DNA of 64,000 nt from positions 617,438 to 681,437 of the forward strand of contig VWZL01002562.1 in NCBI GenBank assembly GCA_013396915.1, read 5' to 3'. This stretch comes from Stercorarius parasiticus (lineage: Eukaryota; Chordata; Aves; Charadriiformes; Stercorariidae). Of the stretch, positions 3,501 to 60,840 are shown one piece after another. A program made the translations under genes and the position numbers. The stretch's first letter is position 1; each line of letters opens with the position of its first letter. The notes beneath the pieces were generated by a model, which saw only the letters and a program-made list of their open reading frames with translations, did not search any database and had not been told where the DNA came from.

Positions 3501-6500
3501 GGCAACTACCTATCAACATCAATGATACTGTTTTGCTGATAACTGAAGAAACTTTAATAATTATAGTTTTCCCAAGTGATCTTTGAAATTATGACAGGGG
3601 ATACAGCACCACTTTTTCCCAGATGCCTTTTGGTGCTCACCATCATCTCCCGTGTTTTCATTTTGTTTTCCAGTTTTCTTTTTTCCTTCATCCGATTCAT
3701 CATCTGAAGATGCATCCTCATCAGAGGAAAGATTGGCTTTGATTTCTTCTAAAAGCATTTTCTTGGCAATTCTTTGAAGTAAAACAGAAAGAACTATTTA
3801 TTCTATTGTTCAAGTAAATCCGTGAATGATAAGTGTAATCCTATACCATTCAGAACTTCAAAAAAAATGGTTGAAAGCTGAACAAAAAAAAGATATATGA
3901 TGAAAAGTCATTGTGGTAAGACAGAATATATCAGCAAAAGTCTTACGTTAAATGTAACGTGTTAACTTGCTTTTAAGAAAGCAAGTATGTATAATGCTTC
4001 TTAAAAAAGAAGTTTCATGCTTTACAGCAAGACCGAAGATAGTTATAAAATGTACAAACTTAAACATTTCATTTTATTCATGGTCTATTTGGATGGACTC
4101 TTGTCAGTTCTGGGACAGGCACCTATATGAACTAACTGTAACAAGAATGAGAAGACGCAGCAGACCAAATCCTAGTACTTAAATCATTCCCACCCAAAAT
4201 GGTTATTGTGCTTACTTGATTTAAATCAATGAGATTAATTTCTTGAGGCACTGAATCTACTTGACTAGCGCATATGTAAACAGTAATAGTTTTAAAAACA
4301 GTGTATCACTGAACACGTTTTAAACAAGGAGAAAAAAAATTATTGCAAATTCATTAACTCACAGGTTAAAAAAAAAAAAAAAGAATTTATTACCCTACCT
4401 CTACATAGCTTGCCTTCAAAGGTGTTACCATTCTAATTGCCTGGGCCCCCACCCTACTGCAAAAAGAGATGCTGTAGTAACTGAAGCAACTCATGATATC
4501 TCAGGATGAACTGATATGAAGCACCTTGGGAAAAAGACTCACACTGAATCCCTCATTTAACTACAAGAACTTGCCCTATAGCAACTACAGCAAAAAAAAA
4601 AAATATGTGTATATACATATACACACAAAAATTTTTATCAAACATTAGGGGACCCGAACTTCAAAGAAAAATTACAATCTTATTTCCTGTTCCCCAAACT
4701 GTTCGCTCAGTACTTCCAGGTGGAAAAAAAAAAACAAACCTGAAAGAATGAAACCAGGCCTCCCTCATATAAATATAAGAAATATTATAGTTTTCATTCC
4801 ACGGTCGTCAATTTTAAATCAATTTTTTTTTTCCCTAGGTCAAATCTAGTCTGTCTTGCCTTTCAGGAGAATTAATGGATAACTGTATGCACATAGTTCA
4901 GAAAGGGAAAGCTTTTATACCAGCCAAAACAAACCATAGTTCAAAAACCATGAAACTGAACCACAATCTAGGCTTCACTTGGAAATGACAAAGGAACAGT
5001 GATCCCTTAAGTACTGCTTCTTATACATTAGAAAATTGTTACTTTTATGTAGCACTATGAAACAGGTTTAAAGAATCTGTATTTCATTTTTCAGTACGTA
5101 ACGCGTCCCTATAACAAAGGAGCTTTTCAAAGGGAATTTTCCCAAGGTAACTTTCCTAACACTTTGTACAGTATTTTCTATTTTTGAGTGGTAGTATATT
5201 TTCCTAAAAGATTCTAATGCTAATGAATATTCAGTTATTATTAAAAGATGGAAGCAAAATGGTTTAATAAATATTTAAGATTTCTCAGTGAGTCAATGCC
5301 TATCCATCAGCATCCAAAACACCCTCCCTGAGAAATGGCTTATGAAGAAATAGCTATTTAAAATTTTAAAAATGCAGTACACTCAGTAAGCTTTAATTCC
5401 ATATATACCACCAGATCACAGTGTGAACCCAATGAAAACTTACTAAAATTCATAAATAAGTTAACATCCTCTTCCAAATGTTTTTTTGCATTAGGTCCTT
5501 GCAGAGGAATTGGAAAAGGGACTTTGTTGTTGGCGGTGGTTTTTTTGTTTTTTTGTTTTTTTTTTAAACCCACCACATCATGTATAATAGCAACAGGAAT
5601 AAATAGCTCCTTATAAAAAAAAAATAAGACTATATTTCTTCCATCTCTTAATGGTCAGAAGAACTTTTTCTTCAAAATGAAACTGCTTGGAATATCACAG
5701 GTTGGTGTCTCTTTAAAGGCTTTTAACATGAATTATTAACCTTCTGTGATTCTGTGTAATCCTACTCCAGGAAATGCAGACAACAGCAGTTTGGCTATTT
5801 TTCTTGTTTAAAAAAAAATGACAATATCATCACCGAAGTTTTGCTTTGGAGGAGAAAAAGCAGCAGAAAAACTAAAAAGAACTGCAAAATTTTAAAATTC
5901 AATCCTGAAAGTATGGGCTAGTAATACTGCCTTTGACTTATTTTGGATTGTCCTCGATTGCATTAGCAAAGTTAACACAACTTGTACATGGACAACAATA
6001 CTTACCTTTCATACCTTTAAAAATTATTTATGTATTTTTAAACAAAGGTTGACTTTGGTTCTTAACGAAAGACATATGTTTTTATTTGTTCTTTTAGGAA
6101 ATATTTTTATAGGGGGAGAGGAAAAAAAAAGCAGCATATGCATCATTCACCTAGAAATACCATGCACAAAATCTACTACCCATAAAGAGAAGATGCTGTT
6201 ATCTTCCTACTAATCATCATCATAACCACCAACCACATTGGGTAAACTTAACTAGTTTCTAATTAATTATTTATAATAATATTGATTAATAAGTTATTGC
6301 TTTTATACTCTGAGACGGAAAATGAGACTTTCTTAGCTATGATAAAGATTCAGCCACTTTGAATCAAACTGAGATGGAACTGCTTGTTTAGTGAAAAAAG
6401 CTACATTCTCTTCAATGCGTTCTACTGGTACGATGTCAGGCTAAAAATTTAAGACACTGTTGAGACGATCAGAATTAAGATTCCTATTTTTAATATAACT

Positions 6501-9500
6501 ACATATCTGATAGGAATTAAAAGTGTAAGCAATATTAGAACCAAACAGATTAAGCCTTGTAAACGCATCTAACAAATGATTGATATAACAAATGGCTTAT
6601 GTGAATTGGAATAAACTGAGTACTGGAGTCTTGAAACTGGTTTTAAATTAAATTAAATGTGGTCAGGATAACACATCACATTTCTATTTTGAGATATAAA
6701 ACCATTTAAAGTGACAAAGTCTCTAAACTAAGAAACTTCTTATGCTAGCTTTAACATTTTAATATTTGCATAAACATCAAACTGCAAGTACCAAGAAAAA
6801 GAAGCTATGATAGTGCGAGAACTCCCCTGCTCACAGTCTTCCAGAGAAACCCATGAAAATCAAAAGATCCTGTAGTATTTACTTGGGTTAAAGACATAAA
6901 AGATATTCTTGGCCGACCACATTTAATAGTTGAACGCCCTAAACAAATATAATTAAGAAGCACAGAGTATGACCCCCAGCACATACCCTGGTATGACAGT
7001 ATGACTCCCAGCACAGCACTTCAGGTAGTAAAAGAAAAAAAAAAAAAAACTAAAACACAACAACCAAAAAGCCCCTGCATTTCATTCACTTCTGCCACTG
7101 ATCTGCTGTGACCTTGAGCATGGTCATGTTACCTCACCTCGCTCCATCTTACCTAAACACATCGTGAGATTTCTATAAAGGACATTTTCCCAACACGTAT
7201 TTATACAGTGCCTTACAGAATGGGACTGTAATCTCAACCAGGACATATAAAACCAACTCTAGAATAGAATAACAATACATATATGTATAATTTCATATAA
7301 ATCAGGATTTAAATGTATTTCACCTTTGTCAGAATGACACCAACAACACATATTTATAAATAATGAATTGGTTACTATGTATTCGCTAACTTACACTGAA
7401 AGAAAACATTTTTTAAAAAGGGGCAAACTGGAAGTTACCCAGGAGTTGCTTGTTCACAGTATAGGACTACTTTAAATGATCCTTCAGACATTTCGGCAAA
7501 ACAGGAATAGTAGATGCAGCCTCTCGTGATGTGGAGTCAAGTCCACACGACAATTTGTACCATTCTTGTTCATGAATTTTAGACTGCCAATATGATGGAC
7601 TCATTCACAGATTGTCGAAAATCTTGTTGAGACAATGCTACCACTGTAAAAGTGTGTTTTCTTCTTAAAAAGTCATTAATTTTAAATATTAGTTAATTAT
7701 CATGACAGATTACTACCAATTAGATTGCATCAACTCACACGTAGTGTTCATAAATACCTACTAATTACACGTAGAAATAAGGTTGCCCAAAACAAGCCTT
7801 TGGGGCCATGGGAAGGGGACATTTTTATGTGGCTAATAAAAGCCACCATTCATTCAGCTAGAGCACTACTGAATTAAATGGGCCTTTGGTATATATTACT
7901 AAAAAAATTTAGAACCATTTAAAATATATTATAAGAGATGAATATCTGGATGAAGTGTCACACATGTTTTTTTTTTTAAAAAAAAAAGATAGTAAAAACT
8001 GCCAAACACCTTGCTCTAAATACTGTACTGTCTCTGTTGAAAGAGTCCGATTTTCAAGCTGTCGGAGTTGTATTAAATTAAATGCTTGGACAAGAAAAAC
8101 GTTTTACAAAAATTTATTGCAACCATCAAATACTTAAAGGCATTCTGCATTCAATACACTATTAACTTCTTAATAAACAAAACTACTGCAAATATATTAA
8201 ACAGTACCATTTAAAAGATCAGAAGGACCAATAATAGATATTTACACAACATAAGATGAAAGCATACAGCACTCTATGTCATATTATGATCCATTTGGAT
8301 ATTGCACTTTGGCAAAGATGATTTCAAGACTATTAATATTCATGTCATGCACATCCAAAGGTATGCAAATAACAGAACATCTAAACTAGAGACTTGCGAA
8401 CATGACAGTTCCCACACTACAAATACCCAGTAGGTACTATGTACCCTCTTTGGCCTGGAAGAAAATAGGCAACTTATCTGAATAGTAGGTAAACTATTTA
8501 AACACTTTGTGTTGAGTAAACAGAAGAACAAGCTTTTAACTTCTTGAAATTTGTTCCATCTCTTTACATTTTATATATCTGATTTTGGTGCCAAGTACAA
8601 CACGTGATGAATGTAAAATTAGACTGCAATTACCAGTTAACATGTCTGAAGGTTGACAAAACTGTTTATTGACAAAGTATCTCCCCATCTCATATATTCA
8701 AAATATTCCCTAAATAAAAACTTCAAAGATGCAGCTTAGAAACAAAGTACAGAAACTGATTTTTAAACCTCAAATTCATATTACTAATTTGTTTGCTATC
8801 AATTGGTTAACTCATTTCCCAATATAGCTCTTAAACTAATAATTAATATCTGTCAGCAACATTTGTATGATAAACACTGAACTTTGACAAAAGTGTATTG
8901 GCTTAGTTATCAACCAGAAACACTTAAGAAACAAACAAACAAAAAAATCAAAACAGGACTGAAATTAAAGCATCATTTTAAAAAAAAGTCTTGATTACCA
9001 ATGTTTATGTGTTCTGCTTATGACCCCGTGCTGTCAAGTCCCTAAAGAGCATCTTTCTTTAAAAGCTGAATTATTCGATTAAATTTGATGACTGAAAACA
9101 AGCAAGAACTACATCAGCAGCAACGTTTTGATGCCAAACTGAGGTCCATAAAGGATATAAAACAGTGTTTTTAAAATTCACTTCAGCCACAGATCAAAAC
9201 ATACAACTCTGTGAAACAAAGATACCACATTCTAAACTAGTAAGGCTCAGAAGCAGAAAAAGATGCCATCAGCAACTGTGCAAAGCTATGAAGCTGGTCC
9301 CATACATGCTATATGGCAGAAAAAAAATCAGTTTCTGAAATACTGTATAAAAATTTGTTGAACAACTCTTTAGTCTAACTACAATAACTTCCAAAAAAAA
9401 GAAACTGTGGTTCATAATTGAGCAATACTTCATGTTGTGCGTTCACTCATTAGGAAACAAAGCTTTAACATTTTCTAGCCAGGCTAATTTTGATAACTAC

Positions 9501-12500
9501 AGTAGTACTAGTAAAATATGACATGTCTTAACTAACTATATCTTACATAAGATTCATTTTTATTGAACTTGAAACTGAAGCAATACATATAAGCCACAAT
9601 TCTGAAAATATCTATGCAGACTTAAAATTTATATGTATAATTAGTCTCTCTGATACCAGTTAAGCCTATGCACAGTGCTTGGAGAATCAGGGCCTTAACT
9701 ATCCCATTAGTCACTTCAGTATTCTTTAGTGGATTAAAACTCAGTTTAATTAACAGCTGAAAAATATCTAATACTGATTTCTCCACATTTACTTTTCTCT
9801 TTATTGAGAAAATGTTTTTCAATTAAAAAGACAAATTATGTAACAATAATAACCAAGTTCAATCTGAAAATAATTTAGCACTGCATTTTGCACAGATGCA
9901 AAGTTTTACCTTCTATTGATATAACTAGCTGAAATTCACATTTATCAGAAGCTTTTACCTTTCTGAATGAAATATTTGTCACAAACCTCACACTTTAAAT
10001 GAGAACATAAAATGGACAGTGATGCAGTGCATTTATAACACACCCTACGCAAGGTGTGTTAGCTAACTAAATAACTTTCTTTGCATTTCTGGATTTTGGC
10101 CTCTGTTTTCTGGCCCCTTGTTCAAACTTGCGGGAAGCCCGTGAGTGAGTCTTTACAAGGCAGGCAGTCGTGGTTTTTACAACCTGCTTGCTCTTCCGTT
10201 GTGCCGGTTTGCGCCCACGCCTAGGGTGTGTTATAATCTTTTTTAAGTCCTTACGGATGGTATCATACCTATTCTCAGGATCGTCATCATCATCATCCTC
10301 CTCCTCCTCCATTGGAACAGCCCTTGATTTAGTCTCTCCCTCATCTCCTGGGGGAGGAAGGTGAAACAAAAAAACAGAACACATGAACACTTAATACATG
10401 TAAAATCAGCAATAAACACCACCACCGCCACTTTTCTACTAGCAAACAAAAAAGCCAGTTACCTATCTTGACATACAATTACTTTTATTAATAAAAGCAT
10501 CTTGCAGTACTCCTATGCATAGTATGCTTGCTACTACACATAATTTGCAATTCCTTCCTTATTACATACTGTGAGATTTGGATTTTTACACCAAAACAGA
10601 GACTGAATAATCCACCTAGGACTCAGAAATTAAGTTTCCCAAGAAGCGTAAAATGAAAAGAAGGCTGAAACGAATATATTGCAGAATCACTTCCCAACTT
10701 ATGAGCTACCCCGCTGCCATTAGTAAGTACTCGAGAACAGTAATCCCTGCCTATTTTTGCTTTCAGAGTATCCAATACAACGCATGTACATTTGTTGCAC
10801 ACGTGTGAAGACTTCTGTTTTGAAAACTACCTGTGCTATCCTTACTGCAAATATCAAAATTCATCTGCATCATGTGGATACTGTCTTATATGGAAAGGAC
10901 ATCAAAACCAATAGCATGGCACATGCACAAGAGAGAAGAGCACAGTATGATACCTGCCTTTTAAACTCCTCTGCGCTCTCCTGGATGAACTGAGAGGAAT
11001 TCACATTACTTCTAGTACACTCCCAGGCCTTTCCCCTTTCTTTGCTCTCCTTCTTCTAACTCGCGTATAAGTCAGTCAAATCTGCTAGTTAGTAAAATTA
11101 AGCTTAGGAAAAAAGACCTCAAAATCCTAATGAGCTGAGATCCCCATATTCGTAATTTCTACTGTTCATTTTCTACCTGTGGGGAGTGGACTAAAACTAC
11201 GCTGCCAAGAGGCACTGTATGTTGTTTTAACATACACGCGTCCTGGAATTGCCGCTCACCAGATGTCTGACAGGACTGTGTAAGAGGTGATCACAGAAAG
11301 ACCCTCACCCTTGGGCTTAGATAAACAGAAGTATCCTGTTGGTTAAGGCAGACTCTAACGTCTCATTCAGTGATCCAACTACATCGCTTGTTCAGACACA
11401 GAAAAGACTCTTTTGTTTATCCACCTATTAAGCCAAAAGCAAACTGAAGAGAAAGGTCAAATCTGCCTCCTCTTAAAATAATATAACAAAGGCAGATTCT
11501 CATAGAACCATATAATAACTAATGTTGGAAGGGACCTTCGGACATAATCTACTCCACCTCCACCCTCAAAGCAGAGACAACTCCGAAGTAAGGTCAGCTT
11601 TCTCAGGCCCTTGGCCAGTCAAGTTTTGAGTATTTCCAAGGACAGGAATTCCAAAATTTGACAGGGCAACCAGCTTCAGGCTTTGACCATCCTCAATGTA
11701 AAGAATTTTTTCCTAATATCTAATCAGAGTTTTCCTTGCCAAAACTTGTATCCACGGCCTCTCATCCTTTCATCATTCATCTGCCTCAGCCTTCTCTATA
11801 ACTACCCATTAAGTGATTAGAAGACAGTAATTAAGACTCACCAGTTTTAGTATTCTCTTCTACAGGCTAAACCAACCCACTTCTCTCTCAGTCTAACTCT
11901 ACTGTCAATCATGCCACATCACCATCTCATTTTTCCAATTTGTATGCTATTATCCATCTCTCCCATCCAACCATTATCCAATCTTTCCACTTGTGACTTG
12001 CAAATAAAACCATCACTGCCACTGCTTCAGACACCTTCTGATATATTACAACCAACTTTTTTCTCCTAGGCCATTTCAATACCAAGTCTATGAACACACA
12101 CTGTATGTGAGCAATTTTATTTTTAAAGTATATTTCTTTGAAGGTCCAGTGATGCTGAGAATTGTTGCATATGGGTTACACTCACTGCGTATCATCAATT
12201 ATTTATGGGGAGTGTTTTAACAGCCGTGGCAATTACCACATGCAAGACACTAGTTTATTACTATATAAACCGTTCGTTATTCGTGTATCTCCCCCGGCAG
12301 TGGCATCACTGAGGAAAACATTGTTTTGTCAGCGATCAAGGAAAAGCCCTAGAACTCCCAGTATTACATACAGAGACACAACTGATTTCAGCAGAGGACC
12401 TTGAAAGGCCAAAGCAGCACAGCACCTGTGAAAAGCAATGTTTGCACCTGCAGAGATTAATAACTCTCCAGAAACTGAACTACAGAAAAACTTAGCGAAG

Positions 12501-15500
12501 AAGTGGGTCAGCATCAAGTTGATAGGAAAAAGGAGGAACCTTATTGTTTAATTTAAAATCCAGGTGTTCTGGGGTTTTGTTTGTTGGGGTTTTTTGTTGG
12601 GTTTTGTTGTTTGTTTTTTTTTTAAGAAATCACAGATATCAGTCATCTCATTTTGCATTTAGTGTCTGCCTACAAGGGCTTTTCAGGAAAGCCAAAATGC
12701 AACTATGTCCCTTCTGCTATCTTCATAAGCATATTGCTATTTTATTCATTTTTCGTTTAGTTGCAGCTTTGCAAACTACTGTATCCAAGCCAACAGTTAC
12801 AGTGCAGTCATGTACAGAAAGTTCTACGAAACATCATTAGAAGCAAACAAATAGTAAACAATTAACCTGTCACAGCAAATAGATTTCGTTTTTTCTAGTT
12901 GAAAATCCATTTACTAAAAATGTGTACTGTCCATGTAATGTGAAAACTACTGTTCTTTAAAATCAAGTGTTCAAATTCAGCAGTTCTGAATTTCTTTCTA
13001 ATTTCCTAAAGATGTAAGACACTGACGAGGTAGTTCTATCTTGGCAAGAAAAAGAATTATTACTATTAAACCTGCTACAAAAGCAATAAGCAGTGACAGA
13101 TTTCTGTTAACTGACACCAGCTGCTCTAAAGCTACATGGGTCTCATGAGGCACAAAGGTCTTGAGGCACTTGATTTTTAAATTGTATACTACAATGCCAC
13201 AGGTCTTCAGAGTCATCTCTAGTGCATAACCATAAGCTAACAAATTTGAGGTCACTAGATACCCACTGCTTAAAACCAGCTTCTGCTAAATAGTGCCTGG
13301 GCAGCCAAAAGAGGAACAGGCTTTTGAAAGCTGTGCTGCAAGGAAATACCTGCTGGAATTACAGACTTCTCAAGCCTCTCCATTTCCAGTCACATCCTTT
13401 CTTCCCCACGTGTGACAAGCTGCACAAGTTGAAATGGGCGCTTCCAAATCAGTATCAGAAAACATAACTGGCTGCAAATGTTTAAATGTTTAATTACAGC
13501 TGCTTATGAATATTTTCACTTCTTATTAAATATTACCCAAATCTTACAAACTTCCTCTATTAGTATATTAATAATATGTGTAGGTGAACATCTTTTGCAC
13601 ACCTGATGACTGACAAAATCCTGTACCAGCAGACAGCATTAAGTTTTCGGTCACCGGCATAATTTTCTGCTCATCACTGCTTCCATCACCTGTTGAATTC
13701 TGTTCATAATTTTCTTCCTTATCAGATGAGGATGAGGAAGTGGAAACCACCTTCTTTTTTAAGTTACTCTTCTTACTTTCTTTCACTGACCCTCTTTTAA
13801 TCTTCTTCTTACTGTCTTCATAGGACTCCTCATCAGAAGAGGACAATGAGTCATTCTGTTCTTTCTTGGACATTTTCTTTTTGTGACTTATTTTTTTCTT
13901 TTCTTTAGATTCAGTTTGTTTTTTACTCCGCACAGCATCTTCAGAAAAACTCTCCTCTTTTAGGGGAGATTTCTCAGCATCAGAGGATAAATCAAGCTGT
14001 ACTCTTTTAGATACTCTCTCTCTCAAATTCCTCCTTTGCTCTTCTTTAAGCACTGGTTCATTTTTAGTTTTGTCATTTTCAGAAGAATTGCTACTTCCTT
14101 TCTCTGGAGATGACTTTTCAACATCAGAAGAGGAATCATCTTGTTCTTTCTTGTAACTTTTCTTTTTCAATTTTTCAGATTTCTTTGTTTTGTTTTCTGA
14201 TCCTTTTTTATTCTTGAATCTGTCTTTTGAAGAATCAAAATCATGCTCTTTCTTGGCAGATTTCTCAGTACTCTCTGACGAAGAATCTTCCTGTGCCTTT
14301 TTCTTTTTCAAATCCTTGCCCTTCTTAACTTCAGTTTGCTTTTCACCTTTAGGACAACTCTCCTCCTTCTCCAGTGAAGACTTCTCAACATCAGAAGACT
14401 CATTGTGCTTTCCCTTTACAGTTTTTTCTTTTAAGTCTCTGTTTGTCCTTTCCTTAGCAGCTGACCCCTTACCAATTTTTTTATCCTTAGAAGAATGATT
14501 AATCTCCTTCTCTGGGGAAGGCTTTTCAGCATCATCATCTTCAGAAGATTTATCTCTTTGTTTCCTCAAATCTTTCTTTCTCTTACTGCTTACTTTTTTC
14601 CTCTGCTCTTCTTCAGAAGAATCATAACTATCATCTTTTCGTGAGTATTTTTTCTTAGCTTTTTTTGCAGACTCAATTTTACTCAGAATTTTTATTTCTT
14701 TTTCTAACTCAGAATCATAGTTTGAAGAATCTGAATAGTTTTGTCGTTTCTTTTTAGCAGCAGCAGAATTTTTAGCTGATTTGCCTCTTTTAGCATCTAA
14801 ATCTGAGCCAGAACTGGAACTTTTTCTTTTTCGTTTTCCATTTTCATCCTTTACTGGTGAATTCTTTAGAAAATTTAAAGTCTTCTGATCATTTGTTGGT
14901 GCTTCACTATTGCTATCAATATCTGAAGAACTGCGACTCATCATAGCTACTTCTTTAAGAACAGCTGGCATTTCGTCAGAATCTGAGCTATGATCTAATA
15001 CATATGGCTTTTTTGATTTAGAAAGTTTATTAGGGCTAGGACCATCAACAGTACTGTCAGATGAATTTCTTTTATCATTTTTCCTCCTTGGCTGTCTTGA
15101 TGATTTCCTCTTACGTTTTTCATTACATGTGTCATTGCTATCTTCTTCTGAATTCGATGTTAAAGGACTGATGTCTGCTTGGCGCCTTAGAGGTGTGGTC
15201 TTCACACGTGGTGATCTCCTGAGATCAGATTCCTCTGCAAGTGAGACAGTTTCGTTCTCCGTGGAAAGTTCACTGCCAGCATTATGATTTTGTTTTACAG
15301 AATCACATTTTTCTGCTCTAGGTACTACATCAGCATCCTTACTTCCCTTCTCTAGACTGCCGTCTTGATCTTCAGCTTTAACTGTTGACTCCGAAAGGGA
15401 AACAGGAGTCAATTTTACAATCAACTCTTTTGTTCCTTTAGCCGATGACTTTAACTTAGTACCACCTTTGGTATCTTTCATAGGAGTGTTCAACTTTGTA

Positions 15501-18500
15501 TTGGAATTTAAAGTCTCGTGATCTGTTCCTGTATTTCCATTGTCTGTCTCATCTGATGTAATCTGAATCTCCATAGCAGATTCTGGAGTCTCAAAAATGT
15601 CTTCAGGAACAGATGAGGGAATGGACACTATATCCATGTCTAAAGCCTCTGTACTATTAGGTTTATACTGAGGTTCTTCATTTCTGCCAGACCTTTTATC
15701 TTCACCAGAAGTACACTTATCTGTTTGCTCCATTGTTGGAACACTTTGATCCATGGGCTCGCTGTCAGGCCGTTCTGATACAGCTTTTTTCTGTGTCTTT
15801 ACGGTGTCATCCTCTTTTAATGCCACATGTTCCTTTCCTTCATCTTTTTTCACCTCATTTTTTTCTGATCTAACATCAGGTTTTTTCTCTTTGGTATTTT
15901 TATCTTTGTTTTTAACATTCAAAGCTTGAATCTCCAGGTTCAGACCTTCTTCTAGTGCTAGATGAGCTTTTTTCATGTCACTCAACACAGATTTAAAAGC
16001 TTTTAACTGACAAAGTTGCACAGTTGGGCTTATTTCTACATTTTCTGCAGCATTTTTCAAAAAGCTTACAAAGCTAGAATTCAGATTTGCTGTAGTTTCA
16101 ACCAGCTTTTTTGTTTTCTTAAGCAAGTCTTTTGGCACCATTAGTGCTTTATAAGAATATGTTAGTGAACCTGAATATGAATCATCTAGGTTTTTTTCTT
16201 CACCATTACAATTTGAATTATTTCTCTTTGGAGAAAACTTGACTGTCTGGTCATATATTTTACTTTTTTCACTTTCAACTTTTATCTTTTTTTTGTTTTG
16301 TTGTAGTAACTGTTCTAAATTTTCAAAGACACTGTCACATGCAGTGACCAAGTCCAACAAAGGCTCTGGATGGCAAATATAGCAGTGCCACTGGTTATTT
16401 TCATCCAGTATAGTCGATAGCTCCTTTCGACCCAGGTTGCGCAAAATGCACTTTTTACAGAAGGCGTTATGGCAAAAGTCACAGCAAATCAAGTTTCCAC
16501 CTTCAGCACACCACCTGAAATCAGACATAAGAAATATAAGTGTCTTATCTGCATATCAACCAGGTGACAAGTTTGAAAAGTTTACATATTTTTCACTATT
16601 TGATAAAGAATTTGCATTTTAAAAATTCAGGTGATAAACAGATATCCATTATTTGAAAACATAATTAAAAGCATGACTGAAAAGCACTCAATTGACTGAA
16701 CTGGAAAGTCAGAAAAATTAAGATCTTAGATTAACAGTTCACAAAACTGAAATGACCAGTAATACCCTAACACAATTTCAGCACCCATTTTAAGTAAGAG
16801 AAAAAAATTAATTGAATTTTATTTTCCATGTTTCTTCTAAGAATTTAAAAAAAAAATATTTTATTTTACTGCGAAATGGATTAGCTTAAGTCTTTCTAGC
16901 TTTAACTGGTATATTACTACTAGAGGCACATATAAAAAAAGAAACATGTTTTTTGATCTATGTTTAGACTGCAGAGTCTTTGACGAAGACCTGAAAAGCA
17001 GCTGACAAGTAAGCTCATAAGCATCACAGACTGCGCAATTTTGATTGGATTACGTATTTAGGTATTTAACAGAGAAGTACTTTAGTATTTCAAAAGTGGG
17101 AGATGCATCTGGAAAAGTAAGTTTTTGTTGCTCACAAGGTTTAGAATGTCCGATTCTAACCTCACCTTTAAAGTATTTGTAAGGCGGCATGCTATTTAGT
17201 TAAAAATGTGACATCTTACAAGTGTTTACTATTAGATTTCTTTATAAAATGCTTTCCTGTTAATTACTAAAATAACAATCAAATATTTACAAAAACCCTC
17301 AGGTTGAGCATTTCTTTGTGAGAAACAATTGTTGACTAAGCTATCATTACTGGTCTTTATCTGTCAATATCTGTCAATAATTTCATTATTGCAAGAAAAA
17401 AAAACCACACCCAAAACAGAAGACCTGTGGGTGTTATTTCAGTTTTTGTACACTTACCTACACTGTTCATCCATCCCATCTGAATCACGGCTAATGTCAT
17501 CGCTCATGTAATACTTGTAACAAGTCTGTGAAGAAAGAGATAAGACAAGGAATTTTTTATTAAATCTCTACTGGACTTCAGTAGTTCATATGATTTCAGC
17601 ATGTATTAGAAGCAAGCCATTAAAAGCAGCAGCTGCAAGGTCTCCAGCATTCTAATCCTTTTATGTTTGTATTAATCTAAAAAACATCTTCCATAGATAC
17701 AACAGGTCCTGAAACATGACTTCTTATTTAGATAGCTCAAGGTTTACTTGAAAATTAAATAAGCTTTCATTTGACAGCTGCGTATTTGCATATTTTGAAA
17801 CATCAACTGAATGCTTCTCTTCAAATCTGAAAGTTTTTTCCATCTATTTCCTATGTAAATCAACACCACGTATTCCCTGACACAATTAATCATACATAAT
17901 TTACAATTCTCAGCTGTATGCTCCTTATGTTAGCAATCGATCCCATAAGACTTTGAATAAAAAGGTCTTCATCATTTATCCTGATGTTAACATCCAAGGC
18001 TTCCATTTCCAGATGCAAACAAGGCATTTTCATTGAAAAATTGGTAATGCTAAGAAAAAAAACCCCACAACTCAGCTAGTAGTAGCAGTGGCTTCAGTTG
18101 CTGAATTCTATAACCAAATTTTGACAGTCTGGGGCTTTTTCCCAGTTGCAAGTAAAGAAAGTTCGCCCAGGCTTGGAAGCTCTACTTTGAATCGGGATTA
18201 ATACAAGCTCTTAGCTAAATTCTGTCCTTTTACCCAGTGAATCAGTGAATTCAGAATCCAGAAGAGGCTTCAGCACCTGAATTTAAAATTATGCCGCCTC
18301 TTTATCTGGAACAGTTATACACTTGTTCAACTAAACAATAACAATCAGGAAAAAAAACACAGTAAAAACTGATGTTTAGACATGTAAGGGAACATATATA
18401 GTCAAAGGAATACAGCTTCCCAAGTCTGGGACTGTTTACCTAAGCAGAAGAAAAATAAGGAAAGAACTAGGCACAGAAAGTCATGGAAGACATGGAGTAT

Positions 18501-27500: not shown

Positions 27501-30500
27501 TCCCAGTGTCAAAGAAATATTGAAGAAATTAAAGTGTAACTGTGTATGAAGAAATAATACAGTTGGTGCATTTTTTTAATCTCTAAGAGCTTAGTTATAA
27601 GAACTCTTAGTTATAAGAATACTCTAAGAGTATTTTCTCTTACACATCTTCACATTAAAAACACAGTATTAAATCTGGGATCATGGAACCACAGACAAAA
27701 ATCCCATTTGATACAGGACATGATAGAGAATCCCCATTTCTCGATCTTGGGAACTGTGGAATATAAAACCTAAAGCCACGCAACCTATCAGAATCTGTTC
27801 CATCTCCCAGTGCAGGTAATGGAAGGGAAAGCTTCAAGTTCAGTTATTCAATGATACTTGTATGAAGTTGCTCAAAAGGCTTAGTAATAGCAGTATTTTA
27901 ATAGATGCACTACTGAGAAAGACACAAGTAAAGTGGTAGTGTAATTACAGGATATGTATCATGATCATTGGTGATTTTAACATAAGATTGCTAGCACTGC
28001 AACTTATTATATTCCTTACACTTCAGTTTTTGGAAAAACAAGCAATTTTCTTCTAGACTCACAGAATGGTTTCAGCTGGAAGAGACCTTAAAGATCACCT
28101 AGTTCCAAGCCCCAGGCAGGGACACCTTCCACTGCACCACAGTTTAGTTTATTATTCTGCTGAAGTATCACCTATGTTAACAGTTCAGTTTGATAGTGAC
28201 ACAAGGAGGTTAGCACCACACAGCAGCAGTCTCTCTCTCAAGACAAAACAATAAAAGATAGTAACGGCACACCAGAAAACCCACATAAGTTCATTATTTA
28301 GGACAACAGGAGTTTGAAAATAAACTCCGTAACACAGCCAACACACTCTCGTTCTCCTGTACTCTATCACTTCAGCACAACTTTTAGCTCATTAAACAGT
28401 AGAGATTGAAAGGTTTTGCACCTATATCCAGTCCTAGTTAAACCAGGAAACAGATTTAACCTAGTTAAATTTGGAAACAAATTTTACTCAGTACTGTCAT
28501 GAAATATTTTCGCTTTTTGTGACTGTAATCAAAACAAAATGTTTCAAATTCGTTACTTACTTCTAACCTGGGTCGGGGCAATCCCAAGCACCGATATAGG
28601 CTGGGCAGTGACTGGCTTGAAAGCAGCCCTGAAGGACTTGGGGGTGCTGGTAGACAACGGGCTCAACATGAGCCATCAGCGTGCACTAGCAGCCCAGAAA
28701 GCCAATCGTATCCTGGGCTGCATCAGGAGAAGCGTGGCCAGCAGGCCAAGGGAGGTGATTCTCCCCCTCTACTCCACTACCGTGAGACCCCACCTGGAGT
28801 ACTGCATCCAGTTCTGGAGCCCCTACTACAAGAGAGATATGGACGTGCTGGAACGTGTCCAGAGAAGGGCCACGAGGATGATGAGAGGGCTGGAGCACCT
28901 CTCCTATGAGGACAGACTGAGAGTTGGGGTTGTTCTGCCTGGAGAAAAGAAAGCTCCAAGGAGACCTCACAGTGGCCTACCAGTATTTTAAGGGGGCCTA
29001 CAAGAAAGCTAGTGAGGGACTTTTTAGGATGTCGGGTAATGGTAGGACTAGAGGGACTGGATTAAAACTAGAGATGGGACGATTCAGACTGGACGTCAGG
29101 AAGAAGTTCTTCACCATGAGGGTGGTGAGACACTGGAAGAGGTTGCCCAGAGAGGTGATGGAAGCCCCATCCCTGGAAGTTTTTAAGGCCAGGCTGGATG
29201 GGGCTCTGAGCAACCTGATCTAGTGGGAGGTGTCCCTGCCCATGGCAGGGGGGTTGGAACTAGATGATCTTTAAGGTCCCTTCCAGCCCTAACAATTCTA
29301 TGATTCTAACCTGTAACTAAAAATTTCTAATACCAAATTTGACCTAGTGTAGGACTCAAAGTTTTTCAGAAGTATTATTTTGTTTTCAAATGTTTCCAGA
29401 TTACTTGTAGAAATCTTTTCCAAACAATTATGAAAGTATAATCTCCAGGACTTTTTCCACGAGTAGGACTGCAAAAGCTTTACTTCAGCAGAAAAAACAA
29501 GATACTAGCCTTACACATTCAGGAAAACTGAACAAGGAACCCCTAGCACAGAAATAGAATCACAGAATCATAGGGTTGGAAGGGACCTCTGGAGATCATC
29601 TAGTCCAACTCCCCTGCCAGACCAGGGTCACCTTAGAGCAGGCTGCACAGGAACGCGTCCAGGCGGGTTTGGAATGTCTCCAGAGATGGAGACTCCACCA
29701 CCTCTCTGGGCAGCCTGTNNNNNNNNNNNGAGGATGACCTCCCTCGACCCGCTGGCCACACTCTTCTTGATGCACCCCAGGATGCCATTGGCCTTCTTGG
29801 CCACAAGGGCACATTGCTGGCTCATGGTCATCCCGTTGTCCACCAGGACTCCCAGGTCTCTTTCCACAGAGTTGCTCTCCAGCAGGTCAGCCCTCGACCT
29901 GTACTGGTGCATGGGGTTATTCCTCCCCAGGTGCAGCACCCTACACTTGCCCTTGTTGAATTTCGTAAGGTTTCTCTCCGCCCAACTCTTCAGCCTGTCT
30001 GGGTCTCTCTGTGTGGCGGCACAGCCTTCCAGTGTGTCAGCCACCCCCACTAGCTTTGTGTCATCAGCAACCTTGCTGAGGGTGCACTCTATCCCCTCAT
30101 CCAGGTCATTGATGAATATATTGAAGAGAACTGGACCCAGTACTGACCCCTGGGGAACACCACTCGTCACTGACCTCCAAATAATGTACATGTTTCCCAT
30201 CTCACGTTTCATAGAAGGTACGTTACCAGTAGAACTAGCTTTTTCCACGTTTAGAAAAGATTCAGAACTAAAAGAAATACTGTATCAAAGGCCTATTATA
30301 TACTTATTAAAATATCACCACTTAAATCACTTCAGGACTTTGCATAATTGCCCCAGTGAACTGTGATACAGTGAAGTAACAACACAGAGTTATTTGACTT
30401 TAGAATCATATATACATTAAAAGTAAAAAAAAAGTCTTTTTACCTATAGTTTTGTTTTTAGATAATGCTGGAGGAGAGTTTGCGTCCTCAGATTCTTCCG

Positions 30501-57400: not shown

Positions 57401-59454
57401 CCCGTTAACACATGCATACCACATACCCCACATTAATTTTCTAGTGTTAAAGAAAAAGTTTAAGGCCAGACACTCATCTAACAATCAAGGGAAGCATCTG
57501 GCACTTGCAAGGGCAAGTTTTGTTGAGTCCATGAACACAAGCAGTGATCAATTCTAATTGAAATTTTAAATGGCACCCAGCAGCTCATGATTTGCTAGTT
57601 AACACAGCATCAAAATGGGTATAGGTGTGCCTTCTTTTCCATGTCAGAGGATAAGAAACCAATTAATTTCAACTAAGTATAAAAATCACCTTTACAGACC
57701 ACTGACACCTCCAGATTTATACAAGAAGGCCATAATATGGTTAAGGATCCAGCACGTTATAACTGTAAATAAGTGTCAATAAACATATTAACTAGCAGAA
57801 CTTTTAGACTGCCTGGCCAGCAGTAATTCTACAAACATTTTTTCAGCAGCTCATGCCAGAAAAGTTGAGTTTACACCCTCTCTTTCTCCAGAAGCCTATC
57901 AGCATGAACATTGTCCCTGCAAAGCCACAATTATTTTAGGAGGGAGACAAATAATTAAGGGCTATGTTGTTTTCTCACATGCATATTACGTATAAATTTC
58001 CACACGTTTAATTTCAAATATAAACTTGCTATAATTTACCCTAGTATATTCCTCCCACATACATGAAAGTTTTATCCTGTTCTTAAATTTAATTTCCTAA
58101 AAACATACAATGACTTCCCATTTCTAATTTAGGACTAAATTAAGCCCATACTTGCATACAACACACTGTCTGTGAGGCTGAAGAGCAGTGAACATCACAA
58201 TCACCGAGTAATTTCTGGGTGGTGCCTTCACAAGGCGTCGAAATTTGTCTCCATTCATTCGAATAACAGATCTTTTACTGGCCCACTCCATTAGCTGGTT
58301 CACTTTTTCTGATAACACCATCTGAAAATAAAGTCAGAGAAACACTGATTTTTTTTGTTGTTTTTTTTTCCCCTAGTCTCACAGTACAGTCTTAAAGGTT
58401 TTTACATTTGACATTAACAAAGAGCCGCACTGTATTTCATAGGAACACTGTCCAGATGATGCTATGCTTCATTAAGATTCTTGAAGGCATTCACAGATCC
58501 TTTTGACAGTCATGTTAATATTATACGTTTACTTTAACCACTTAGTAATACGCATGTTTTAAGCACTTGGCATTACACATGCTGGTGAAGACTATCAGCT
58601 CACTGTACTTTTTCATGTTGCTAATTGTAAGATTTCTTTCAGATGTACAAACTGGCCCAAATCACTCCTCAGTATTTATTTGATACTAAGCATCACACTC
58701 TGTTTCAGATTTCAAAACTTGGTGGAAGCAGAATCAACACTAGAGATGGAAGGACCAAGCAAGTGAGCTCAACACCTAATTTTCGGCATTGCCGGAAGAA
58801 AAAGGATTCAGTACATATCAGGAGAACTGAAGAGCGCTCAATACTAAGCTCTTCTTTAAAAATGAGCCAACCAATTCTATAACATTATACAAAGTATTAG
58901 ATAAGTGACAAATCCCCAAATATCACTTCTATCATAAACTACTTCTCTACTCCTTATTAACACCCTTCTCAGATAAATACTTGAGGATAAGTAATAAACT
59001 ACTCTTCTTTGACTTACAACTGACACAAGTACACACAGAGGGACATTTTCAAACCCTAGGACTCAAGCGTCCGAAAATAAGGAACACCTTTTAGTTATAA
59101 CCAAAGACAGCCAGTCCACCCACTCTCCCCCTCCACATCCCACACAGAAGACAAGAACGGGAGAACCTGGGATTAAACACGCACAAAAATAAAAGAGAAA
59201 TTAGAACTCTCTGATTCTAAAAGGCCAAATGCTCCGCTCGGCCCCCAGGCGCTCCCGCGGGCTTTCCCTCAGGGCCTGGCCGCCGCTGCCGGGGGCAGCC
59301 GAGCCTCGGGCTGGGGGAGGCCCACGGGCGGCCCAGGTCACCCCAGCCCGCGGGGCTCCCGGCGGCACCTCACCTCCTTCCGCTTCTGCCCGGCGGCGGG
59401 CGGCCCGCCCCAGGCCAGCAGCAGGAGCAGCCCCAGGCCCAGCAGCGCCGCCAT
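48388..59454 (-). CDS. MAGT1: MAGT1, oligosaccharyltransferase oxidoreductase subunit / magnesium transporter 1
   Basis: Complete 10-exon coding sequence of 328 aa (human 335). Exons: 59454-59374, 58321-58152, 57315-57198, 55864-55724, 55216-55076, 54744-54655, 52301-52238, 50229-50155, 49689-49599, 48403-48388, with every phase consistent. MAGT1 is the OST3/OST6-type subunit of the STT3B oligosaccharyltransferase in the ER and was also reported to support Mg2+ uptake. Features: a signal peptide of about 22 aa ([17 protein letters not shown]...), a luminal thioredoxin fold with the redox motif CVVC at residues 80-83, and four membrane segments (in exons 5, 5/6, 7/8 and 9). The C terminus is YPYSFLMS, as in human. 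No broken exon. The start follows a CpG island and encodes the signal peptide directly; an in-frame upstream ATG exists at 59628. Confidence 0.97.
49599..49689 (-). CDS. MAGT1: MAGT1 exon 9 (last membrane segment)
   Basis: 91 bp encoding [20 protein letters not shown] then RSKYHGYPY, with a Ser codon split AG/T at the donor (AG|GTACGT). Contains transmembrane segment 4. Confidence 0.96.
50155..50229 (-). CDS. MAGT1: MAGT1 exon 8
   Basis: 75 bp encoding [20 protein letters not shown] then GKRK, with split codons at both ends. Ends transmembrane segment 3. Acceptor TTCATAG, donor AAAA|GTAAGT. Confidence 0.95.
52238..52301 (-). CDS. MAGT1: MAGT1 exon 7
   Basis: 64 bp encoding [20 protein letters not shown] then F and the first base of an Asn codon. 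Starts transmembrane segment 3. Acceptor CTTACAG, donor TTTA|GTATCC. Confidence 0.96.
54655..54744 (-). CDS. MAGT1: MAGT1 exon 6
   Basis: 90 bp (30 codons) encoding [20 protein letters not shown] then [10 protein letters not shown]. It finishes transmembrane segment 2 and the conserved [13 protein letters not shown] loop. Acceptor TTTCAG, donor GTG|GTAAGT. Confidence 0.97.
55076..55216 (-). CDS. MAGT1: MAGT1 exon 5 (first membrane segment)
   Basis: 141 bp (47 codons) encoding [20 protein letters not shown], then [20 protein letters not shown] and GWAFAAL. Contains transmembrane segment 1 and the start of segment 2. Acceptor GTTTAG, donor TTA|GTGAGT. Confidence 0.97.
55724..55864 (-). CDS. 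MAGT1: MAGT1 exon 4
   Basis: 141 bp (47 codons) encoding [20 protein letters not shown], then [20 protein letters not shown] and ADRTDVN. Includes the cis-Pro loop (APTF) of the thioredoxin fold. Acceptor ATACAG, donor AAT|GTAAGT. Confidence 0.97.
57198..57315 (-). CDS. MAGT1: MAGT1 exon 3
   Basis: 118 bp encoding [20 protein letters not shown] then [19 protein letters not shown], the middle of the luminal thioredoxin-like domain. Very close to human. Acceptor TTTACAG, donor ATG|GTAATG. Confidence 0.97.
58152..58321 (-). CDS. MAGT1: MAGT1 exon 2 (thioredoxin-fold start, CVVC)
   Basis: 170 bp encoding [20 protein letters not shown], then [36 protein letters not shown] and a split Lys. Contains the CxxC redox centre. 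Acceptor TTTCAG; donor GCAA|GTATGG, with the Lys codon split AA/G. Confidence 0.97.
59374..59454 (-). CDS. MAGT1: MAGT1 exon 1 (signal peptide)
   Basis: 27 codons: [20 protein letters not shown], then AGQKRKE. Leu-rich signal sequence with likely cleavage near AAG|Q. The sequence diverges from the human signal peptide but keeps the Q-R/K-K-E end at the splice site. Donor GGAG|GTGAGG. Confidence 0.93.
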
Positions 59455-59720
59455 AACCGCCCTGCTCTGCCGCCTCACGCCTATTGGCGGGCGCCGGCCC
59501 ACCGGCAGTGCAGCCCCGCCCAGGCACTTCCTATTGGTGGCGGTGCCGGCCCGCGACTGGCCGCCGGCCTCTGATTCGTTAAACCTGCCTCCAGCACGGG
59601 CCGCCGCTAACCTATAGGAGCAAGGCAAGCTGGAGCCGTGCGATTGGCGGAGCCCTCAGGGAGGGTGGGGCGTGCCGGGACCCGCGGGAGATGGCGGTGG
59701 GAGGCTTTCTTCGTCGGCCA
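59455..59720 (-). promoter_or_regulatory. MAGT1 CpG-island promoter
   Basis: CpG-dense region upstream of MAGT1. It has three ATTGG elements (CCAAT boxes read on the minus strand) at 59,483-59,487, 59,533-59,537 and 59,643-59,647, an ETS-like CACTTCC at 59,525-59,531, and a YY1-like GAGATGGCGG near 59,688. No TATA box. CCAAT boxes spaced through a CpG island suggest a constitutive promoter that may fire in both directions. Confidence 0.7.
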
Positions 59721-60724: not shown

Positions 60725-60840
60725 TGTCAGAAGTGGGATTCGAACCCACGCCTCCATACGGAGACCAGAATACCCAATCCGCTACGGGAAGGCATACAAC
60801 GCCTTGAGTCTGGCGCCTTAGACCACTCGGCCATCCTGAC
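60725..60840 (-). tRNA. tRNA-Leu (anticodon CAA) with intron
   Basis: 116 bp, with an 84-nt mature form. The acceptor stem pairs GTCAGGA with TTCTGAC, with discriminator A. The A box (TGGCCGAGTGG) and B box (GGTTCGAATCC) are intact, and the long variable arm is typical of Leu tRNA. The anticodon CAA is at 60,806-60,804, followed by G and then a 32-nt intron (60,802-60,771) before the 3' half of the anticodon stem (TCTGG). Vertebrate tRNA-Leu(CAA) genes carry an intron at this place. A TTTTT Pol III terminator follows at 60,720-60,716. It runs away from COX7B, about 300 bp upstream of that gene's start codon. Confidence 0.97.

What the first reader, a model, noticed from the sequence alone, without database searches (positions are those of the whole stretch)
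10067..10347. ATRX exon 10 reads through its splice donor into a long basic tail: a likely bird ATRXt terminal exon
Seen: the ATRX frame stays open for 66 codons past the donor and encodes a Lys/Arg-rich tail with an AT-hook-like core (RRGRKP). It then stops, and AATAAA follows about 260 nt later. Known, from memory: mammals make a truncated isoform, ATRXt, by retaining the intron after this exon. Inference: the isoform is ancient, and its tail may be a DNA-binding module that replaces the SNF2 motor. Because the exon 11 helix would be missing, it should also lose DAXX binding.
Basis: partly seen in the sequence, partly recalled or inferred. Interest (0 to 1): 0.75.

Follow-up and report, generated by a model that had tools for sequence, protein, structure and literature searches.

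The report
Bird copy of known ATRXt tail
This stretch of a bird's ATRX gene encodes the special end of a known short form of the protein, ATRXt; it is real and old but already described in print, and its suggested DNA-binding motif is not shared with the mammals, frogs and coelacanth examined.

Summary
On the minus strand the ATRX frame runs from exon 10 (10347-10269) through its donor for 66 codons (10267-10070), stops at 10069-10067, and AATAAA follows 262 nt later. The open frame alone is weak evidence: about 3% of the window's GT sites do as well. Conservation decides it: the tail ends 88 bird, 2 frog and 7 mammalian records; the lynx record has 1331 aa and a 61-aa tail, the sizes printed for ATRXt. 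[quoted passage not shown] So the ATRXt reading is right and already known. I add one older relative, a coelacanth gene model (40 of 66 tail residues identical). DNA binding by an AT-hook is not supported: no profile match, and the RGR core is in 81 of 89 bird records but 0 of 10 others. Loss of DAXX binding is half right: the crystallographic contact residues go, but the direct test I found in print still co-precipitated DAXX. Bird transcripts could not be tested.

The parts
13603..16516 (-). ATRX exon 9 (large exon; second half of the ADD domain plus the long charged region); the 5' boundary given is where the tblastn match begins, not a mapped acceptor
   Evidence: ORF and PDB match to human ATRX ADD; tblastn with the Chauna ATRX record; donor CAG|GTGTGC at 13602
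10269..10347 (-). ATRX exon 10, shared by full-length ATRX and ATRXt
   Evidence: spliced full-length records read ...PENR|IAKK
10070..10267 (-). exon 10a: 66-codon read-through tail of ATRXt
   Evidence: found in birds, mammals, frogs and coelacanth
10067..10069 (-). TAG stop codon of ATRXt
9800..9805 (-). AATAAA, candidate intronic poly(A) signal 262 nt after the stop; use not tested
3772..10268 (-). intron 10 of full-length ATRX (about 6.5 kb), whose start is retained in ATRXt
   Evidence: donor TAG|GTATGA, acceptor CAAAG|AATTGCC
3641..3771 (-). ATRX exon 11, begins with the DAXX-contact helix IAKKMLLEEIKANL, absent from ATRXt; the 3' end is inferred from the best-scoring donor
   Evidence: match to ATRX chains of 9l06, 5y18, 5y6o and 5grq

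Best explanation
The segment is the avian exon 10a of ATRX, the terminal coding exon of the known truncated isoform ATRXt. When the exon 10 donor is not used, the transcript runs into intron 10, translation adds 66 basic residues and stops, and an intronic poly(A) signal ends the mRNA. The product keeps the ADD domain and the long charged region, loses the SNF2 motor and replaces the exon 11 DAXX-contact helix with a conserved tail. By analogy with human exon 10a the tail most likely works as a nuclear/nucleolar targeting and RNA- or chromatin-association segment. Shown here: the open frame, stop, hexamer and deep conservation of the peptide. Inferred from the human work: isoform production and nucleolar targeting in birds.
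For: Open frame, stop and AATAAA. Of the 92 proteins, 90 end with this tail (88 birds, 2 frogs; a few stop short of its end), 1 (P0081) has its first 47 residues internally and 1 (P0092) lacks it. (96 proteins) adds 7 mammalian records of 1169-1334 aa, each with a 61-residue tail; lynx P0094 is 1331 aa, the length printed for ATRXt. Tail identity to the window exceeds that of the rest of exon 9 in frogs (60 vs 47%, 2 of 2 records) and mammals (68 vs 52%, 4 of 7 records). Neutral simulation of the tail DNA at 0.8 substitutions per site gives 26% mean identity and 6.8% stop-free even without indels. Coelacanth P0100: 40 of 66 tail residues identical, alignment score 193 against at most 67 in 2000 shuffles. 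[quoted passage not shown] birds, GFP fusion goes to the nucleolus.
Against: No transcript data for any bird were available. Nearly all bird rows are marked 'partial' and are probably homology-projected models (recalled), so they show the peptide in each genome but not use of the isoform; such models can hide frameshifts, a few tails carry small in-frame insertions or deletions (for example P0045, P0048, P0049, P0053, P0083), and a species with a broken tail would not appear. Within birds the tail is not always more conserved than exon 9: passerines 73% (58-86) against 82% for the rest of exon 9 (6 records). No reptile record with the tail turned up: the turtle and crocodile models that I printed (P0104-P0106, P0119) have neither exon 10 nor tail before IAKKML, so reptiles rest on the paper's legend. 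The exon 10 donor is not unusually weak: 5.7, sixth of 12 best-scoring candidate donors (-0.8 to 10.3; recalled matrix, sites not verified). Deleting exon 10a from human ATRXt reduced but did not abolish nucleolar localisation.
Confidence: 0.93

Rival explanations
1. The read-through frame is a chance open frame in an intron with no function.
For: About 3% of GT sites in the window have as long an open frame; AATAAA is common.
Against: The peptide is conserved to frogs, mammals and coelacanth, far above the neutral simulation; mammalian ATRXt protein is demonstrated in print.
Confidence: 0.01
2. The tail is a DNA-binding AT-hook module that replaces the SNF2 motor.
For: RRGRKP is present in the window and an RGR core in 81 of 89 bird records; the tail is 35% Lys+Arg.
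Against: No Pfam match for the tail up to E 10 (HMMER filters may drop weak ones). The core reads RRGHK or RHGQK in mammals, KRGPK or KRGSK in frogs and RRGLK in coelacanth: 0 of 10 non-bird records have RGR. Deleting exon 10a from human ATRXt left localisation to H3K9me3 heterochromatin. Non-specific nucleic-acid binding by a basic tail is not excluded.
Confidence: 0.08
3. The conserved start of the tail (YD[ST]I..D[LF]KKIITHP) is a replacement amphipathic helix that keeps a DAXX or other partner contact in the short isoform.
For: Counted without gaps in the 99 records that hold PENRY, hydrophobic residues stand at +4, +8, +11 and +12 after PENR in 96, 99, 98 and 94; +1 is Tyr in 97 of 97 tails aligned without that selection. 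Residues 1-15 are the best conserved part in frogs and mammals (70 and 82%). ATRXt co-immunoprecipitates DAXX despite lacking the exon 11 helix.
Against: In register, the contacts K1273, L1276, L1277 and I1280 become mainly T/S, K, D and K/T/S, and L1276A or N1269A-K1273A abolishes binding by ITC. In tinamous and Galloanseres residues 1-15 are the least, not the best, conserved part (83% against 87-90%). Hydrophobic moment is borderline for the bird peptide (0.58; 5.0% of shuffles reach it), better for the mammal one (0.62; 0.4%), lower for two frogs (0.46, 0.36), and the real exon 11 helix itself scores only 0.20, so the measure does not pick out DAXX binders. The co-IP was with transfected protein and the authors place binding in residues 1189-1270, before the tail. 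The structure tool was off.
Confidence: 0.12
4. The tail is also an in-frame cassette in long ATRX, spliced from an internal donor to exon 11.
For: The Eurypyga gene model P0081 joins 47 tail residues to IAKKML; the coelacanth model P0100 also reads the tail and later exon 11, with 160 residues between PENR and IAKK.
Against: Both are gene predictions; of the 128 proteins loaded only these 2 have residues between PENR and IAKK, though the search behind them listed 120 of 309 hits. The corresponding window GT (10127, CAA|GTTTGA) scores about 0.
Confidence: 0.04

Closest known systems
ATRXt (truncated ATRX isoform) with exon 10a; Levesque and Picketts 2026, PMC13074095 (abstract, introduction passages, Results, Discussion and legends seen; figures and Methods not); earlier papers call it retention of intron 11 (passages of PMC1464382 and PMC6862095 seen); original report Garrick et al. 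2004 recalled, not read
   Same: Same read-through of exon 10, same peptide family, stop and downstream poly(A) signal, same loss of the SNF2 motor and of exon 11
   Different: Tail of 66 residues in the window, 61 in mammals; the window has RRGRKP where most mammalian records have RRGHKQ; expression in this bird untested
DAXX-binding motif of full-length ATRX (residues 1265-1288, PDB 5Y6O; PMC5662737, abstract and passages seen)
   Same: ATRXt keeps the shared start of the motif up to PENR (N1269 included)
   Different: The helix IAKKMLLEEIKANL is replaced by YDTIRKDLKKIITH; the contact residues are not kept in register
AT-hook (family recalled, from no call)
   Same: Short basic stretch with RGR in most birds
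   Different: No profile match; core absent from the mammals, frogs and coelacanth examined

Membership tests
ATRXt isoform | In-frame read-through of the exon 10 donor into intron 10 | tested here: met
   66 open codons after the donor in the exon 10 frame; that the transcript does this is not shown
ATRXt isoform | Tail homologous to exon 10a of mammalian ATRXt | tested here: met
   67-68% identity to the 4 of 7 mammalian records compared; lynx record 1331 aa with 61-aa tail
ATRXt isoform | Stop followed by an intronic poly(A) signal | tested here: inconclusive
   Stop met; AATAAA present at 262 nt but the hexamer is common in the window and its use is unknown
ATRXt isoform | Keeps the ADD domain, lacks the SNF2 domain | tested here: met
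   ADD part in exon 9; the read-through frame stops before exon 11 and all later exons; a statement about the predicted product
ATRXt isoform | Expressed transcript and protein | not testable with these tools
   No RNA-seq, 3'-end or protein data for birds
AT-hook DNA-binding motif | Profile match and conserved GRP-type core (core recalled) | tested here: not met
   No Pfam hit for the tail up to E 10; RGR in 81 of 99 records, all birds
DAXX-binding motif of ATRX | Contact residues K1273, L1276, L1277, I1280 | tested here: not met
   No record of 99 keeps any of the four letters; nearest are one M at 1276 and one I at 1277 (counted without gaps); contact list from PMC5662737
Nucleolar localisation signal | Targets a fusion protein to the nucleolus | not testable with these tools
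   Shown in print for exon 10a-GFP in U2OS cells; bird tail untested

The most novel reading that the evidence does not exclude
The read-through exon performs a helix swap: the first 15 residues of the tail form an amphipathic helix in place of the exon 11 DAXX-binding helix, so alternative RNA processing exchanges the partner-binding helix of ATRX (keeping a modified DAXX contact or recruiting another partner), with the tail peptide already present in the common ancestor of coelacanth and tetrapods.
Probability: 0.12. Interest if true: 0.55.

Novelty: already known. Interest (0 to 1): 0.22.

Why it matters
It supports, in a bird genome, that the ATRXt tail is an old and selected part of the ATRX gene and not a mammalian by-product, extends the peptide's age to lobe-finned fish by one gene model, and removes a conserved AT-hook as a general explanation. 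It also sharpens an open conflict: the residues that bind DAXX in the crystal are replaced in the 99 tails examined, yet ATRXt is reported to pull down DAXX.

Tried and rejected
Tail against solved structures up to E 10: no match. Tail against viral contigs: 60 pattern matches, no relative. Pfam on the tail: none; the only hit on exon 10 plus tail is BLOC1S3 at E 0.03, 14.8 bits against a cut-off of 27, over residues 7-49, which span the acidic run and the first 22 tail residues, rejected. Weak-donor idea: the exon 10 donor ranks sixth of 12 candidate donors, so no special weakness is claimed. A frameshift at the C-terminus (window KVI-stop against KVFR in many birds) was considered; the window and 4 of 6 shorebird records (P0001-P0004) have 66 residues, but as these records are marked partial their ends may not be stops; left as ordinary variation. 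dN/dS could not be computed because only the window's DNA was at hand; regional identity and a neutral simulation stand in for it (the exon 9 segment there ran two codons past the splice site, which is too little to matter). Papers on intronic polyadenylation with ATRX and DAXX: one listing, not followed. Search for ATRXt with coelacanth: 0 papers in the held open-access library; the word does not occur in the main text of PMC13074095. Its figures and supplements were not seen. The literature claims rest on six searches of that library; subscription papers are mostly missing.

Full report
What is there. On the minus strand exon 10 of ATRX (10347-10269) ends in PENR and a donor TAG|GTATGA at 10268. 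Reading on, the frame is open for 66 codons (YDTIRKDLKKIITHPRRGRKPAQRKSKQVVKTTTACLVKTHSRASRKFEQGARKQRPKSRNAKKVI), stops at 10069-10067, and AATAAA lies at 9805-9800. In the spliced form exon 10 joins exon 11 (from 3771), which begins IAKKMLLEEIKANL.

Is it more than chance? By itself hardly: in the whole window 124 of 3912 minus-strand and 86 of 2868 plus-strand GT sites have at least 66 open codons behind them, as do 4 of 201 in intron 9 and 0 of 416 in the rest of intron 10. The tail differs from the rest of the intron in G+C (46 against 32%) and CpG ratio (0.74 against 0.28), but exon 9 has a CpG ratio of 0.27 too, so this is no coding mark.

Conservation. A search with exon 10 plus tail gave 92 proteins at E up to 1 among 199 candidates; 90 end in the tail: 88 birds from tinamous to passerines, and the frogs Xenopus laevis and Nanorana parkeri. 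One (Eurypyga, P0081) carries 47 tail residues joined to exon 11 and one (Chauna, P0092) is a long-form model without the tail. A search with the frog tail gave 96 proteins among 153 candidates, adding 7 mammalian records (one coded bmy, lynx, and five records of two rhinoceros species), each with 61 tail residues. The lynx record has 1331 residues, the length printed for ATRXt. A third search gave 309 proteins, of which 120 were listed; it added coelacanth P0100, whose long gene model contains the tail after PENR with 40 of 66 residues identical to the window (44 of 70 with PENR). Whether the coelacanth frame can end there with a stop is unknown: the model runs on, with 160 residues between PENR and exon 11. 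No reptile record with the tail appeared; the turtle and crocodile models printed lack exon 10 and tail, so reptiles rest on the paper's legend.

Strength of constraint. For chosen records the tail is more like the window than the rest of exon 9 is in frogs (60 vs 47%), mammals (68 vs 52%), tinamous (87 vs 79%), Galloanseres (87 vs 84%), shorebirds (99 vs 93%) and other Neoaves (95 vs 89%), and less so in passerines (73 vs 82%). Residues 1-15 are the best kept part in frogs and mammals but the least kept in tinamous and Galloanseres (83 against 87-90%). These are protein comparisons on subsets (2 of 2 frogs, 4 of 7 mammalian records, 24 of 88 bird tails); records with a broken tail would not have been found, and some tails carry small in-frame indels that projected models could use to hide frameshifts. 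dN/dS was not possible.

What it is. Levesque and Picketts 2026 (PMC13074095; abstract, passages, Results, Discussion and legends seen) describe the same element: ATRXt reads through exon 10 into intron 10, gains 61 residues from exon 10a, stops, and has a downstream poly(A) signal; [quoted passage not shown] Older papers number the intron 11 (passages). The bird tail was therefore already in print, and bird sequences of it are in public protein records.

What the tail does. In the human-cell work an exon 10a-GFP fusion went to the nucleolus; deleting exon 10a from ATRXt reduced but did not abolish overlap with the nucleolar marker UBF and left H3K9me3 heterochromatin localisation; ATRXt lowered rRNA levels, and full-length ATRX did likewise. 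I therefore take targeting to nucleolus and RNA-rich chromatin as the likeliest role, by analogy. The AT-hook idea is not supported: no profile match, and RGR occurs in 81 of 99 records, all of them birds (81 of 89), none in 7 mammalian, 2 frog and 1 coelacanth records.

DAXX. Window exon 11 matches the ATRX chains of 9l06, 5y18, 5y6o and 5grq; 5y6o is named there as a DAXX-ATRX molecule, the other two peptide entries being DAXX complexes is recalled. Published contacts are N1269, K1273, L1276, L1277 and I1280, and L1276A or N1269A-K1273A abolishes binding by ITC (PMC5662737, passages). Taking R1270 as the last shared residue and counting without gaps, the tail puts T, S or C at 1273, K, T or M at 1276, D, E or one I at 1277, and K, T, S, Q or H at 1280, in 99 records. 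The tail keeps its own hydrophobic spacing (+4, +8, +11, +12 in 96, 99, 98 and 94 of 99 records), which would suit an amphipathic helix; the moment is borderline for the bird (5.0% of shuffles reach it), stronger for the mammal peptide (0.4%), lower for the frogs, and the real exon 11 helix scores lowest of the five, so this measure is no test of DAXX binding. The helix swap is my most novel reading and is untested.

Species. By exon 9 the closest of the fetched records are the courser Rhinoptilus (96.3%) and gulls (95.2-95.6%); the window is probably from a shorebird. This is inference.

Verdict. Observation confirmed; ATRXt reading right; AT-hook inference not supported; DAXX inference structurally sensible but contradicted by the one direct test found. 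Already known, with a modest extension to coelacanth.

Noticed in passing
window 29628-30284, minus strand: Reverse-transcriptase fragment (Pfam RVT_1, E 3.9e-9), probably a CR1 LINE copy (recalled label), just downstream of an early ATRX exon match at 30558-30439; the stretch also holds a short N run.
   Followed up: partly
window 60725-60840, minus strand: Rfam tRNA match of 50.2 bits spanning 116 nt, which suggests an intron-containing tRNA gene; ARAGORN did not report it.
   Followed up: partly
window 59338-59655, minus strand: Open frame with a signal-peptide-like start followed by QKRKE; resembles the first exon of MAGT1, a neighbour of ATRX in mammals (both recalled; no Pfam match).
   Followed up: no
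P0081 (Eurypyga helias) residues 945-991; matching window GT at 10127: A gene model splices 47 residues of the tail in frame to exon 11, implying a longer exon 10 in long ATRX; the corresponding window donor scores near zero.
   Followed up: partly
P0100 (Latimeria chalumnae), after PENR: Coelacanth gene model contains the ATRXt tail, 40 of 66 residues identical to the window, older than the groups named in the 2026 paper's legend.
   Followed up: yes
tails of passerine records such as P0087-P0089: Passerine tails are less like the window than the rest of exon 9 is (58-86% identity in 6 records) and seem richer in Arg and Ala, perhaps relaxed constraint or GC-biased change.
   Followed up: no
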